From positions 620,001 through 684,000 of the forward strand of contig NC_002578.1 in the NCBI RefSeq assembly GCF_000195915.1: DNA of 64,000 nucleotides, in the 5' to 3' direction. Under the pieces are notes generated by a model. The model made no database searches. It had not been told where the DNA came from and saw only the letters and a list, made by a program, of their open reading frames with translations. Positions 2,738 through 7,481 of the stretch are shown here, in pieces (the stretch's first letter is position 1; each line of letters begins with the position of its first letter). The translations under genes and the position numbers were made by a program. Source of the DNA: Thermoplasma acidophilum DSM 1728. GTDB lineage: Archaea > Thermoplasmatota > Thermoplasmata > Thermoplasmatales > Thermoplasmataceae.

Positions 2738-2929
2738 ATGGTGAACTGGATAAGGGGAATTTCAGCGGCGTTGCTATTCATAGGCCTGGCGTTCTATTTG
2801 GCATGGTCCATTATGTATGATACATGGTTCGATATTGGCCTGTATTCGTTTACCATAGTGCTTGTGGTTTTCGGCATTCTCGGTATAATGCTGACAACAG
2901 TTAAGGATGAAAGCGAAACTGCGACATGA
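2738..2929 (+). CDS. Small two-helix membrane protein, 63 aa
   Basis: The sequence has two strongly hydrophobic segments (about residues 6-26 and 32-54) with a short polar turn and a charged C-terminal tail ('KDESETAT'). No family is recognised. It faces the VirB4-like operon tail to tail, with 15 bases between the two stop codons, so it is not part of that operon. Confidence 0.55.
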   Translation: MVNWIRGISAALLFIGLAFYLAWSIMYDTWFDIGLYSFTIVLVVFGILGIMLTTVKDESETAT

Positions 2930-2944
2930 TAGACTACTCAATCT

Positions 2945-4864
2945 TCAAGATAAAGTGGTATCGACGTCTGTAATGAGAATTTTCACGTATCGTCCACCAT
3001 AGGAATAATAGCATTCGGAAAGGTTGTGGTTCTTTCCTCCGATGAGCTTGCTGAGATCATTGGTGCCCGGAATATACCTTTGAAAGTCGTCCTCTGGCGA
3101 TGCTGTTCTGAAGAAGAATCTGTGAACGCTGTTCTCCTCTATGGTATTTCCAAACATTATATCGCTTATGCTCTGTGTTATTATGAATACAGAAGTTTCG
3201 AAATGCCTGGAATGCCTCACGGTGTTCTCAACCAATCTGAGGGCATCTTCGTTCTTCAACACCATGTTCGCTTCATCTATGATCATGGTCTTGCGCCCGT
3301 CGATCTTTGACATGAATTGAGATAGCGCTTCTGCTATCATTAGGCCGGATGTTGCCTCCTTTTCCGCACTGATCAGATCATACTTTATTATAATCGCCCG
3401 ATACAACGAAACATCGGTGATCGCTCTCCTTATCAAATCAAGAAAACCAATGAGATCCGTCTCCATGCACGAACGCCCAAGTTCAGTACAATGGTATTCG
3501 TTCAGCGGATCGAGTATCAGCAGTTTTGAATATTCAGCTCTGAACACCCTACTTGAGAATACCTTCGCAAAATACGATTTCCCAGATCCAGTTTCCCCGG
3601 TCACTATGGAATTGTAGGATGTGTGCGAAAAATAGTCCAGATAGATCGGTTTCCCTGTGTATTCATTTATGCCAATAAGTATTCCGGACGTCTCCTCCCT
3701 GGAGAAGTAAGCTGGGAAGAATGATGCAGCAGAGGAGGCATCCATGGGGTAAGGCGTATTTTCGCGTGTGAAGTCAAAGAAGCCCTGGACAGAGCGTGAT
3801 GCCCTGTAACTCAGATTCCTCGCTCTCATTCCAGCTATTCTGAGGCCTCTGTCAAGTTTTGAAATCTCACGCTTTAGCCCGTAGGGAGTTCTGCTCATAA
3901 CCATGAAATCCAGGCTGCAAAGGAAAGCTTCAGGAGTATCCTTTCTCGACTCATTCGATAGTATCTCAGCAGAATTCAGTACAGATTTGAGATAATCAGT
4001 GTTTTCCTTCCTGCTATTTCTCTGCTTCAATTCAAAGGTTATGTCAGCGATCTTTGTTGAAGCTGTCTTTGCAAGTTTTTTTCTGTCGACATGCTTAGCG
4101 CTGAACTTCACGGCGGCGTTCAGATCGCTGATCTCAAGAGCTTCACAGTAGGACGGAAAGATAGCTTTTTCGGCGTCAACAAGGCTGAATATTGATATAT
4201 TCCTGCTTCCGGAAATATAGTTCTTTCTGGCACGCATGCGGAAATCAGAGAATAGGATCCGCATCCGGCTGATGTCCATATCATTTAATTCGATCCTCAG
4301 GCCAGCCCTCTCATTTCCGAGTGGAACTGCATTTATTGATTGGACCAGTTCATGCTCGCTTCTTCCCTGTGACCATAGCAAAACGTATGTGGAGAAATAC
4401 ACCTTACCATTCAGTTCTGCAATATTCTTAGCTTCTTCCGCAGCATGCGGAATAGAATATGCTGTGACGTCTATTCCAGAAGCGAGGAGGTCGGTTATGA
4501 AGGAGGCGATCTCAAGGAAGCTCTCGGCATGATTGTCATATGCAGATACCGTCTTTGCCACAATCGCTGGGATGTTGTGCATCTTTATCAACGTGTATTC
4601 TCCATATTTCATTATATCCGGCGTTTGCAGCTGGATACGGAAGATACTGTTCAGCCTTGCTATTAAAACATGCCTGATCCTTGGATGAACAATAGCCACT
4701 GAGATTGGAATCGCCAGAATCGCGTAAATGCCAAAGAACCTTGCAAGGATGAGAAATGACGATGCGCTGGCAATCAAAATAATAACAAGGGAGACGGGAA
4801 GGCCATAGTATTCTGGGGTGTAAGCTAGCACATTCCTGAGGACGTTATCCTGCCAGGATCTCAA
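2945..4864 (-). CDS. VirB4/CedB-like secretion ATPase with N-terminal membrane hairpin
   Basis: This 639-residue protein has a hydrophobic hairpin at about residues 22-60, resembling a VirB3-type membrane part fused to the ATPase. A ~350-residue variable region follows. The C-terminal HerA/VirB4-type ATPase domain has Walker A 'GETGSGKS' near residue 423, Walker B 'TMIIDEANM' near 526 and a downstream 'VFIITQS' sensor-like strand. VirB4 ATPases are membrane-bound hexamers that power pilus assembly or DNA transfer in type IV systems; CedB plays this part in the crenarchaeal DNA-import system. It is the last gene of the operon and its start overlaps the preceding stop by 4 bases. Which way it moves its substrate, and whether the substrate is DNA, is inference. 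Confidence 0.8.
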   Translation of the reverse strand: MRSWQDNVLRNVLAYTPEYYGLPVSLVIILIASASSFLILARFFGIYAILAIPISVAIVHPRIRHVLIARLNSIFRIQLQTPDIMKYGEYTLIKMHNIPAIVAKTVSAYDNHAESFLEIASFITDLLASGIDVTAYSIPHAAEEAKNIAELNGKVYFSTYVLLWSQGRSEHELVQSINAVPLGNERAGLRIELNDMDISRMRILFSDFRMRARKNYISGSRNISIFSLVDAEKAIFPSYCEALEISDLNAAVKFSAKHVDRKKLAKTASTKIADITFELKQRNSRKENTDYLKSVLNSAEILSNESRKDTPEAFLCSLDFMVMSRTPYGLKREISKLDRGLRIAGMRARNLSYRASRSVQGFFDFTRENTPYPMDASSAASFFPAYFSREETSGILIGINEYTGKPIYLDYFSHTSYNSIVTGETGSGKSYFAKVFSSRVFRAEYSKLLILDPLNEYHCTELGRSCMETDLIGFLDLIRRAITDVSLYRAIIIKYDLISAEKEATSGLMIAEALSQFMSKIDGRKTMIIDEANMVLKNEDALRLVENTVRHSRHFETSVFIITQSISDIMFGNTIEENSVHRFFFRTASPEDDFQRYIPGTNDLSKLIGGKNHNLSECYYSYGGRYVKILITDVDTTLS

Positions 4865-5796
4865 CCTGAATTCCCCCTCCCGTATAAGGTATCTTTTGAA
4901 TACACCTCACTCCAGTCTATTCTTCGGTCTTTTGAGGTCGATATCATCTCATCGATCTGACCCCCTATGAAACCGCCGATCATTCCCATCGGTATTCTGA
5001 TAGGCTGCATCCTGAAGCTTACATTCCTCATCCAAACGAAAATCAAGGAAGGTATGGCAGGAGCCAGAATAAAAAATCCAAGTTCCAGTATTGGGTCGGC
5101 AGAGAATATGTGGGCCAGAATGAGATCCATCATTATCGGTATGGGAAGAAAGGCAAGTTCCACAAACGTAGCCATTGCACGGATCAGGTACTCCTGGGTC
5201 TTCCTTATGAAGGCTATGGACGAAAACACAGGTATAATGATCATCAGAAGAAGCTCTGCAGCTTCCCTGAATATGAGCTCCGCCAGCAACGATGTTATTG
5301 CGAAAAAGTAGCTTGTGAGATAGATAAAGGCAAGGACGATCGATGAGCTGGCTCCGTTCGAAGTGAAGCTTGATATCTGCGTAACGCTAAATATAGAGTA
5401 CCAGTCTATTCCACCATATTTCCAAAAATATCCGAAGAGATCTTCGAAGATCATGGTTAAGTATACCAGTATTCTGAAGGCAAAGGCCATGGCTAGGAAC
5501 GGTATGAGGAGATTGAGGAGCGCCCGGGTAGCCCTGAAACTTGAAATTAACGATCTAATCGCTATGAAGAGTGAAAATACGATCAGCGTAACCGGTATTA
5601 TTGTGCCATAGACAAGGTCCGTGATCGATCGATATAACGAATAATAGGCGGATCCAGGATCGAGAATCAACCCATAGGAATAAACCGGGTTAAGACCGTA
5701 GTATACCACAAGGTGCCAGATCGGATCCAAAATGGCTAGGTATATGGCTACAATAGCCCTGAGAACATCGTATAACAGTGTTGGAATACCTATCAT
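4861..5796 (-). CDS. VirB6/CedA-like polytopic membrane protein
   Basis: This 311-residue protein has about seven hydrophobic segments (roughly residues 8-30, 60-84, 90-115, 145-168, 175-195, 205-228 and 235-255), a central amphipathic stretch with aromatic residues, and a charged cytoplasmic-looking tail. Size, topology and the position between a VirB2-like and a VirB4-like gene match VirB6/TrbL/CedA proteins, which form the membrane channel of type IV systems. Sequence similarity in this family is weak, so the call rests mainly on context and topology. It overlaps both neighbours by 4 bases (ATGA type), so translation is probably coupled. Confidence 0.65.
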   Translation of the reverse strand: MIGIPTLLYDVLRAIVAIYLAILDPIWHLVVYYGLNPVYSYGLILDPGSAYYSLYRSITDLVYGTIIPVTLIVFSLFIAIRSLISSFRATRALLNLLIPFLAMAFAFRILVYLTMIFEDLFGYFWKYGGIDWYSIFSVTQISSFTSNGASSSIVLAFIYLTSYFFAITSLLAELIFREAAELLLMIIIPVFSSIAFIRKTQEYLIRAMATFVELAFLPIPIMMDLILAHIFSADPILELGFFILAPAIPSLIFVWMRNVSFRMQPIRIPMGMIGGFIGGQIDEMISTSKDRRIDWSEVYSKDTLYGRGNSG

Positions 5797-6068
5797 GATC
5801 CTGTTATGATGTAATTGAACACGGCGTAAAGAAGCCCGCTCACCGCAAGAATGTATATGAATGTTCCAATGGCAGCGTTCTTGAGTCTTGTTCTGGCGAT
5901 CATTCTCTTGCTCTCGTCGGAGCTGAAAAATTCGATTGCTATTGGTATCCAGAGAAGCGATATGATGACAGCCGAGACGGATATGGCTATGGTATCTATC
6001 CTAGTCAAAACGGCGGAAATGCTACTTCCACCGCCAGACAGAAAAGGGATAATGGAAATAAATGCCAT
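5793..6068 (-). CDS. VirB2/CedA1-like two-helix membrane protein (candidate pilin)
   Basis: The small protein has a short N-terminal hydrophobic lead ending in 'GGGSS', a first membrane helix, a basic loop ('KRMIARTRLKN') and a second membrane helix. That is the layout of VirB2/TrbC pilins and of archaeal CedA1/TedC subunits. I take the ATG at 6068 (91 residues) rather than a TTG at 6077, because a TATA-like box on the minus strand lies about 23 bases upstream. It is the first gene of the operon and overlaps the VirB6-like gene by 4 bases. Pilin identity is inferred from topology and neighbours. Confidence 0.6.
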   Translation of the reverse strand: MAFISIIPFLSGGGSSISAVLTRIDTIAISVSAVIISLLWIPIAIEFFSSDESKRMIARTRLKNAAIGTFIYILAVSGLLYAVFNYIITGS

Positions 6069-6084
6069 ACGCTTCAATAATCAA

Positions 6085-6096
6085 ACAATATATAAA
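6085..6096 (-). promoter_or_regulatory. TATA-like box of the type IV secretion-like operon
   Basis: On the minus strand the sequence reads CTTTATATATTG, about 23 bases before the ATG at 6068. It is the only clear promoter-like element before the three overlapping genes, so they are probably one leaderless transcript. Confidence 0.5.
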
Positions 6097-6145
6097 GTTA
6101 TACTTAATGAATGAAATGCAATTGTTTTAATTATTTAGATATTGG

Positions 6146-7481
6146 TCATAATTGTATTCCGGTAAATTTATCCTCTCCTAGCAAGGCCTTTGCTTTCCTG
6201 ATCTTTGATTGAATGAAATCCGATCGGCCTATATCCCTTCTGACGTAATAGCTTCCCTTAACGTGTGCCAGTGAGGAATCTACAAGTTCAGATGCTTCTG
6301 GTATGCTGTTTCCCTTGGCTATTATGGCCAGCGATCTGGATGTGCTCTGCTTCAATCTGAGCATATCACCGCTGACGGAAGCGTACAGAACGTCAACACC
6401 GCTGTCAAATATTGCCTTGTCCAGTTCTATTTCGCCGGGTTTTGGATCGGAACCGTAGCCTATAGGCACTATATACTTCAGCACACTAGCCTTTCTCTCG
6501 AATATCTTGTCTCCCTGAAGGTTTCCATCATATATCTGGTGCAGTGTTTCAACAAAATCGCTTTTGAGGAGCGTCAGAACATTTATTCCCTCGGGATCCG
6601 CAAATCTAGCATTGATCTCTATGACCTTAACGCCATGTGGCGTATCCATGAACTGGCCATACATGATCCCCTTGAAGGGAGTGTTTTCCGAGTTCATCGC
6701 CCGGATAATGTCTACGAGTATGTGTTTTGCCTCCTCGGGAGCACGATCGCTGATGAATGGCAATGTGAAGCTTGAATCGGAGATGGAACCCATACCCCCG
6801 GTGTTCGGCCCTGCATCACCCTCATACGCTCTCTTGTAATCCTGAACGATCGGCATAAACGAGGCGTATCTTGCCGTCGACAAATGCCTGAAGGCTGAAT
6901 TCCTCGCCCACCATCTTTTCTTCTATGAGCACGACACCATCCCTTCTTAGGATCTCGATGGCATATCGCCTGGCGTCTTCAACCGTTTCAAGCTGTTCAC
7001 CCACCACCTTCACGCCTTTTCCACCGGTCAGGCCTATTGGCTTCACAGCCACTTCAGGACCCAGATCTCTGAGTGCGCTTTCCAAATCTTCTTCGCTGAA
7101 ACATTCTCTGAAATTCACGTTTCCCGGTATGTTATGCCTCTTCATCAGTTCCCTCATGAACATCTTCGAAGTCTCAATTCTTGCTGCTTCCATCGTAGGA
7201 GACGCCACGGGGATTCCACGCCTTAGCAGATTATTGACAAGCGGCGTATCCAGCACTGGATCAGGGCCTATGAAGACCATATCAACCAAATTATCAGCGG
7301 CAAAATCCTCGATCTTCCTGTAATCTAATTCGTTAACAACCAGATACTTTGATGAGAGTGATTTGATCGACGGATTCTCATGGCCTATGGCGGAGAACAG
7401 GATGGCTCCTGATCTCTTTATGGCCATTGCTATTGCATCTTCTCTTCCGCCGCTACCAACGATCATAACCTTCTCTGTCAT
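6146..7481 (-). CDS. purD: Phosphoribosylamine-glycine ligase, interrupted by a frameshift
   Basis: PurD makes glycinamide ribonucleotide from phosphoribosylamine, glycine and ATP in purine synthesis. The N-terminal part (from 7481) shows 'MIVGSGGREDAIA', the ATP-grasp segment 'VAVKPIGLTGGKGVKVV' and 'EEFSLQAFVDGK'. The C-terminal part continues in another frame with 'FMPIVQDYKRAYEGDAGP', 'NTGGMGS' and 'EINARFADPE'. The frame changes between about 6861 and 6873: one extra base (or two missing) separates '...VDGKI' from '...SFMPIVQDYK'. Joined, the product is about 445 residues, the normal length, with no domain missing. A sequencing error or a recent mutation are both possible; the otherwise perfect conservation favours an error or very recent change. 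Confidence 0.85.

What the first reader, a model, noticed from the sequence alone, without database searches (positions are those of the whole stretch)
2945..6068. Minimal type IV secretion / Ced-Ted-like DNA-transfer operon in a Thermoplasma-like chromosome
Seen: three minus-strand genes overlap by 4 bases each and encode, in order, a two-helix protein with a basic loop, a seven-helix protein, and an ATPase with membrane hairpin plus Walker A 'GETGSGKS' and Walker B 'IIDEAN'. Known: VirB2, VirB6 and VirB4 (with VirB3) form the core of bacterial conjugation systems, and the crenarchaeal Ced and Ted systems that import DNA consist of the same three parts. Inference: this is a chromosomal, relaxase-free DNA import, exchange or pilus machine in a wall-less euryarchaeon, possibly undescribed. 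No relaxase or coupling protein is nearby, which argues against a normal conjugative element.
Basis: partly seen in the sequence, partly recalled or inferred. Interest (0 to 1): 0.85.

Follow-up and report, generated by a model that had tools for sequence, protein, structure and literature searches.

The report
Chromosomal conjugation machine in Thermoplasma
A wall-less archaeon carries on its own chromosome a small three-gene copy of the machine bacteria use to pass DNA from cell to cell, kept by all 27 genomes of its family that were searched, with the matching motor protein (fused to a nuclease-like domain) encoded elsewhere on the chromosome; this suggests a built-in DNA-exchange system and offers a candidate for the DNA-cutting enzyme not yet found in archaeal conjugation.

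Summary
In a genome with the length of Thermoplasma acidophilum's (1,564,906 bp), three minus-strand genes overlapping by 4 bp encode a VirB2-type pilin, a seven-helix VirB6-type channel and a VirB4 ATPase. Relatives of the pilin hit Pfam T4SS_pilin (27/31) and TrbC/VirB2 (5/31). The channel's six best PDB fold matches are all VirB6, though none is individually significant. The ATPase model matches full-length VirB4 (E 7e-20), well ahead of HerA (1e-6). All 27 family genomes searched carry the ATPase and channel, mostly at a syntenic site among housekeeping genes: a domesticated system, not a passing mobile element. It is not recognisably Ced by sequence.

In 12 of 13 haloarchaeal loci VirB6, VirB4 and this VirD4 are contiguous, usually with a detectable pilin. 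The self-transmissible Thermococcus plasmid pT33-3 has profile-level homologues of VirB4, VirD4 and VirB6. Most likely it transfers chromosomal DNA between cells without a classical relaxase. DNA transfer and its direction are inferred.

The parts
5793..6068 (-). VirB2-type T4SS pilin (91 aa from ATG 6068; ORF extends to TTG 6077)
   Evidence: PF18895 T4SS_pilin 8.6e-5, just under cut-off; 27/31 relatives hit PF18895 (best 9e-9) and 5/31 TrbC/VirB2 (best 2e-9); haloarchaeal relative over both cut-offs
4861..5796 (-). seven-helix VirB6/TrbL-type channel protein (311 aa)
   Evidence: 4/34 relatives hit PF04610 TrbL/VirB6, best 1.1e-6; fold model pLDDT 81, six best PDB matches all R388 VirB6-complex chains (TrwI/VirB6), prob up to 0.93 but E 0.17-1.7
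2945..4864 (-). VirB4-type ATPase (639 aa) with N-terminal membrane hairpin
   Evidence: NCBIfam VirB4 families to 7.7e-15 (below equivalog cut-offs); PDB profile hit VirB4 4ag5 1e-14; fold match TrwK/VirB4 7e-20, HerA-NurA rank 23 at 1e-6
3575..3598 (-). Walker A GETGSGKS (residues 423-430)
   Evidence: residues G423, T425-K429 invariant in 17 relatives
3266..3286 (-). Walker B region MIIDEAN (residues 527-533)
   Evidence: E531 invariant in 17 relatives
4643..4795 (-). predicted TM hairpin, helices 24-59 and 61-74 of the ATPase (VirB3-like position; inference)
   Evidence: fold model; in several related genera this part is encoded by a separate ~231-254 aa gene just upstream of virB4
6086..6097 (-). 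TATA-like element about 24 nt upstream of ATG 6068 (promoter, probably leaderless mRNA; inference)
   Evidence: similar stretch upstream of the pilin ATG in three other Thermoplasma genomes; TATA-like stretch at similar distance in a fourth
2738..2929 (+). 63-aa two-TM protein, convergent neighbour; association only
   Evidence: found next to virB4 in 17 of 24 fetched family loci, the same 17 genomes that carry the VirD4-like gene

Best explanation
The operon encodes the membrane and pilus part of a minimal, chromosomally domesticated conjugation-type T4SS: pilin (VirB2), channel (VirB6) and motor (VirB4, with its own membrane hairpin where VirB3 would sit). It works with an unlinked VirD4/TrwB-type ATPase (genome C1:1284770-1286683, overlapping an upstream 208-aa gene) whose C-terminal domain has PD-(D/E)XK nuclease-like residues. 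Proposed mechanism (inferred): the VirD4-nuclease, or host HerA/nuclease repair proteins, prepares a DNA strand; VirD4 hands it to the VirB4-VirB6 pore; it passes through a lipid-containing VirB2 pilus or direct membrane junction into a neighbouring cell, where it recombines. Shown here: identity of the three parts and of VirD4, family-wide conservation, synteny, contiguity of VirD4 with the same parts in haloarchaea. Not shown: DNA transfer, its direction, pilus assembly, nuclease activity.
For: VirB2. VirB6. VirB4. ATPase and channel in 27/27 family genomes, a thioesterase gene near the locus in 15 loci and housekeeping neighbours (Usp, S17e, purD, scpB); 7TM and pilin distances correlate with those of the thioesterase gene (r 0.68 and 0.64, p <= 0.0002). 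VirD4: PF10412 45.6 bits against cut-off 20.5; co-occurs with the channel in 48/62 against 7/138 genomes; in 12 of 13 haloarchaeal loci VirB6, VirB4 and VirD4 are contiguous on one strand, with a pilin detected in 8, or 9 counting L278 at E 0.0065. Plasmid pT33-3, whose virB4/virD4 mutants lose conjugation (PMC12857230), matches the VirB4 (4.5e-30), VirD4 (6.5e-46) and VirB6 (5e-8) profiles. C-terminal H, D, E-x-E residues invariant from Thermoplasma to haloarchaea.
Against: No experiment. VirD4 is not linked in Thermoplasma and is missing in three family genera that keep the operon (10 genomes). The co-occurrence test ignores shared ancestry. The nuclease domain has only a motif and sub-threshold Pfam hits and no PDB profile hit. 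The VirB6 fold match is not significant on its own. Direction of transfer is unknown; the related-in-kind Ced system imports DNA.
Confidence: 0.62

Rival explanations
1. Ced-like import machine: the same three parts pull DNA from donor cells into the recipient, mainly for recombinational repair; the VirD4-nuclease belongs to another process.
For: Same three-part composition as Ced/Ted and no PF03432 relaxase; ten family genomes keep the operon without VirD4; Ced imports DNA (PMC9905601, PMC11868833).
Against: VirD4 is contiguous with the parts in haloarchaea and co-occurs in the class; a CedB match is far below cut-off and the channel profile misses 298/300 Thermoproteota genomes.
Confidence: 0.2
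2. Pilus or protein-delivery machine: VirB4 assembles a VirB2 pilus for adhesion or delivers proteins or metabolites to neighbours such as ARMAN cells, without moving DNA.
For: Thin pili on Thermoplasmatales cells and connections penetrating ARMAN cells are seen by cryo-ET (PMC4110969); genera lacking VirD4 keep the operon.
Against: Profile-level relatives in a self-transmissible plasmid; VirD4 linkage in haloarchaea.
Confidence: 0.12
3. Remnant or resident mobile element, or a HerA-type DNA repair operon, with no dedicated cell-to-cell role.
For: Sporadic relatives in 15/292 haloarchaeal genomes look like mobile elements.
Against: Present in 27/27 family genomes with intact catalytic motifs in those aligned, housekeeping neighbours, fold ranks VirB4 far above HerA; a separate HerA gene exists.
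Confidence: 0.04

Closest known systems
Thermococcus conjugative plasmid pT33-3 (NZ_OX281346.1)
   Same: VirB4 (4.5e-30), VirD4 (6.5e-46) and VirB6-like (5e-8) profile homologues; no known relaxase (PMC12857230); its VirD4 also shows a PD..E-x-E stretch by eye
   Different: plasmid-borne; much longer VirB6-like (934 aa) and VirD4 (1398 aa) ORFs; no pilin hit; its C-terminal region gave no hit to the nuclease-domain profile
Haloarchaeal VirB2-VirB6-VirB4-X-VirD4 clusters (found here, e.g. Haloferax gibbonsii L248)
   Same: same gene order and profile-level homology of the parts, same C-terminal VirD4 domain where detected
   Different: single contiguous cluster, sporadic (15/292 genomes)
Crenarchaeal Ced and Ted DNA-import systems
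   Same: chromosomal, VirB2 + VirB6 + VirB4, no relaxase (PMC9905601)
   Different: no CedB-level match; channel profile hits 2/300 Thermoproteota; VirB4 loci read there have other gene neighbourhoods; an unlinked VirD4-type protein here. TedA/B/C not compared directly
Cuniculiplasma T4SS components (PMC5155288)
   Same: earlier annotation in the same order of a cluster with VirB4, a multipass protein and membrane proteins, plus a separate VirD4-family ATPase
   Different: the passage read names no pilin or VirB6 and gives no DNA-transfer model or conservation analysis
Patescibacteria chromosomal T4SS (PMC12102498)
   Same: clade-wide VirB4 system in monoderms, VirD4 usually encoded far away
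   Different: bacterial, nested in the MPF_FATA branch, epibiont lifestyle

Membership tests
Type IV secretion system (conjugation type) | VirB4 ATPase | tested here: met
Type IV secretion system (conjugation type) | VirB2-type pilin | tested here: met
   own protein just below the Pfam cut-off; 27/31 relatives hit T4SS_pilin, 5 TrbC/VirB2
Type IV secretion system (conjugation type) | VirB6-type polytopic channel | tested here: met
   4/34 relatives hit TrbL/VirB6; top six PDB folds VirB6, individually E > 0.1
Type IV secretion system (conjugation type) | VirD4/TrwB coupling protein | tested here: met
   unlinked gene, PF10412 over cut-off; absent in 10 of 27 family genomes
Type IV secretion system (conjugation type) | relaxase | tested here: not met
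   PF03432 absent in 31 genomes; other relaxase families not searched
Ced system | CedB equivalog | tested here: not met
   27.5 bits, cut-off 700
Ced system | CedA homologue | tested here: inconclusive
   channel profile hits 2/300 Thermoproteota genomes; no direct profile-profile comparison with CedA was possible
Ced system | UV induction and DNA import | not testable with these tools
   needs experiment
Ted system | adjacent pilin and channel genes with VirB4 nearby | tested here: met
   gene order; sequences of TedA/B/C not compared
Ted system | linked ParA/MinD, HerA or Rad50 genes | tested here: not met
   neighbours are housekeeping genes; HerA is far away
Mobile conjugative element | element-like spread and mobile-element neighbours | tested here: not met
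   27/27 family genomes, housekeeping neighbours, shared context in 15 loci
HerA DNA-repair helicase | HerA fold ranks first | tested here: not met
   top 18 folds VirB4, HerA-NurA rank 23

The most novel reading that the evidence does not exclude
Euryarchaeal conjugation, both mobile (haloarchaea, pT33-3) and domesticated (Thermoplasma), replaces the relaxase by a nuclease domain fused to the VirD4 coupling ATPase, so that one protein both cuts or processes the DNA and loads it into a minimal VirB2/VirB6/VirB4 machine; Thermoplasmataceae have domesticated this for chromosomal DNA exchange.
Probability: 0.28. Interest if true: 0.9.

Novelty: new variant of a known kind. Interest (0 to 1): 0.72.

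Why it matters
Domesticated conjugation machines for chromosomal DNA transfer were described in archaea only in Crenarchaeota (Ced, Ted), and the authors knew of no others (PMC9905601). A family-wide third case in a wall-less, cultured euryarchaeon would suggest independent or ancient domestication, gives a genetic candidate for the thin pili and cell-cell connections seen in Thermoplasmatales biofilms (PMC4110969), and names a testable candidate for the DNA-processing step that archaeal conjugation lacks: the nuclease-like domain on VirD4.

Tried and rejected
HerA repair helicase: rejected by fold ranking. Pilin derived from the channel's N-terminus, as reported for CedA1/CedA: hhalign found nothing. 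Orthology with Ced/Ted: the channel profile misses 298/300 Thermoproteota; 20 Thermoproteota VirB4 loci showed other gene arrangements, and Ted components could not be identified with certainty. Single-sequence search of the ATPase against PDB: no hit; pilin and channel profiles: no meaningful hit. 208-aa gene before VirD4 as homologue of the haloarchaeal gene X between VirB4 and VirD4: not supported. Nuclease domain in Pfam/PDB: only sub-threshold hits. A literature search for genetic exchange in Ferroplasma was not read further.

Full report
What is there. On the minus strand, 5793-6077, 4861-5796 and 2945-4864 encode proteins of 94 aa (91 aa from ATG 6068), 311 aa and 639 aa, each overlapping the next by four bases. 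A TATA-like stretch lies about 24 nt before ATG 6068; a similar stretch precedes the pilin ATG in three other Thermoplasma genomes, and the fourth has a TATA-like stretch at a similar distance. G+C stays at 0.44-0.45 across the operon, close to its surroundings (0.40-0.45), and its neighbours are housekeeping genes: Usp, ribosomal S17e, purD, scpB, a purine/cytosine permease and a thioesterase.

Identity of the parts. The small protein hits Pfam T4SS_pilin at 8.6e-5, just below the curated cut-off. Of 31 relatives found next to virB4 genes, 27 hit that family (best 9e-9) and 5 hit TrbC/VirB2 (best 2e-9); a haloarchaeal relative passes both cut-offs. The seven-helix protein has no Pfam hit of its own, but four of 34 relatives hit TrbL/VirB6 (best 1.1e-6), and the six best PDB matches of its predicted fold (pLDDT 81) are all from R388 TrwI/VirB6-containing complexes; their E-values (0.17-1.7) and TM-scores (0.24-0.41) are weak, so this is support by ranking, not by significance. 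The ATPase matches VirB4 families (7.7e-15, below equivalog cut-offs), VirB4 of Thermoanaerobacter by profile (1e-14) and full-length TrwK/VirB4 by fold (7e-20); the first clear HerA entry (HerA-NurA) appears at rank 23 with 1e-6.

Conservation. In 200 genomes of the class, all 27 members of the family carry the ATPase and the channel, and a pilin gene lies beside them in 23 of 24 fetched family loci. Iterated profiles find the same neighbours in other families of the class. Fifteen loci share a thioesterase gene near the operon and 17 share a convergent 63-aa membrane protein. Channel and pilin distances correlate with those of the thioesterase gene (Mantel r 0.68 and 0.64). This is the pattern of a resident chromosomal system. 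The channel evolves fast: 35-69% identity within the genus, against 94-98% for the thioesterase.

A coupling protein after all. A TraG/TraD search found a 637-aa protein at C1:1284770-1286683, 659 kb from the operon. It passes the Pfam cut-off for TrwB_AAD_bind by 25 bits, has no predicted membrane helix, overlaps an upstream 208-aa gene of unknown family, and ends in a ~240-aa domain with invariant H, D, E-x-E and K residues and a nearly invariant P before the D. Single members hit CoiA_nuc, DUF6035, Replic_Relax and Hjc below threshold, among other weak hits; I read this as a PD-(D/E)XK nuclease-like domain, an inference. [quoted passage not shown] VirD4 (strong hits only) occurs in 48 of 62 genomes with the channel and 7 of 138 without (phylogeny not corrected). 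Ten family genomes keep the operon without it.

Linkage elsewhere. The channel profile hits 15 of 292 haloarchaeal genomes. In 12 of 13 fetched haloarchaeal loci (L277 lacks a detected channel in the scan) the channel, VirB4 and VirD4 lie in that order on one strand. A pilin is detected upstream in 8 of these at E below 0.003, or 9 counting L278 at E 0.0065, and the VirD4 C-terminal domain is recognised by its own profile in 10 of 13. The D and E-x-E residues are invariant from Thermoplasma to haloarchaea. The Thermococcus plasmid THER333_p (103,230 bp, from strain 33-3, taken here as pT33-3) has homologues of VirB4 (4.5e-30), VirD4 (6.5e-46) and the channel (5e-8); a review reports that mutating its virB4- and virD4-like genes abolishes conjugation (PMC12857230). 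In one other Thermoplasmata genome VirB4 and VirD4 are neighbours on two contigs.

Against Ced/Ted. CedB scores 27.5 bits against a cut-off of 700; the channel profile finds only 2 of 300 Thermoproteota genomes; 20 Thermoproteota VirB4 loci have other gene arrangements. Ced and Ted themselves share no recognisable sequence (PMC9905601), so this says it is a separate lineage, not that it works differently. The channel and pilin profiles do not resemble each other here, unlike CedA/CedA1.

How it probably works. VirD4 (with its nuclease-like domain, or with HerA and repair nucleases) supplies a DNA strand; VirB4 and VirB6 form the motor and pore; VirB2 forms the pilus or junction. Identity, conservation and linkage are shown; transfer, direction, pilus and nuclease activity are inferred. 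Genera that lack VirD4 either use another loader or run the machine for import, adhesion or protein transfer.

What was known. Golyshina and co-workers listed a VirB4 cluster with a multipass protein and a separate VirD4-family ATPase in Cuniculiplasma as T4SS components (PMC5155288), and VirB4 was noted in E-plasma (PMC10354927). In the papers searched I found no description of the pilin, the VirB6, the family-wide conservation, the haloarchaeal linkage or the VirD4-nuclease architecture as one system; supplementary files and most subscription papers were not available.

Noticed in passing
window 6146-7481 (-): purD (GAR synthetase) is split into two overlapping frames here but is one intact ORF of 437-444 aa in three related Thermoplasma genomes: a frameshift or a sequencing error.
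   Followed up: partly
window 2738-2929 (+): 63-aa two-TM protein convergent with virB4, found in 17 of 24 fetched family loci, the same 17 genomes that have the VirD4-like gene; possible accessory or just shared synteny.
   Followed up: partly
L034, L031-L033 compared with L071: Channel and ATPase diverge fast within the genus (channel 35-69%, ATPase 34-61% identity) although a nearby thioesterase gene is 94-98% identical.
   Followed up: no
L059:10826-15520 (-): Several pilin-like domain proteins (320-405 aa and a smaller one) in tandem next to the T4SS genes of a genome sized like Aciduliprofundum boonei.
   Followed up: no
L224:6152-6778: 208-aa gene overlapping the VirD4 start in three Thermoplasma genomes, no family assigned.
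   Followed up: partly
L199-L201, L213, L215: Thermoproteota VirB4 loci with long (~550-615 aa) multi-TM proteins and a ~220-aa 'LWFE' protein nearby, apparently a different archaeal T4SS type.
   Followed up: no
L038, L039, L041, L045, L047: In several family genera the N-terminal membrane part of VirB4 is a separate ~231-254 aa gene.
   Followed up: partly
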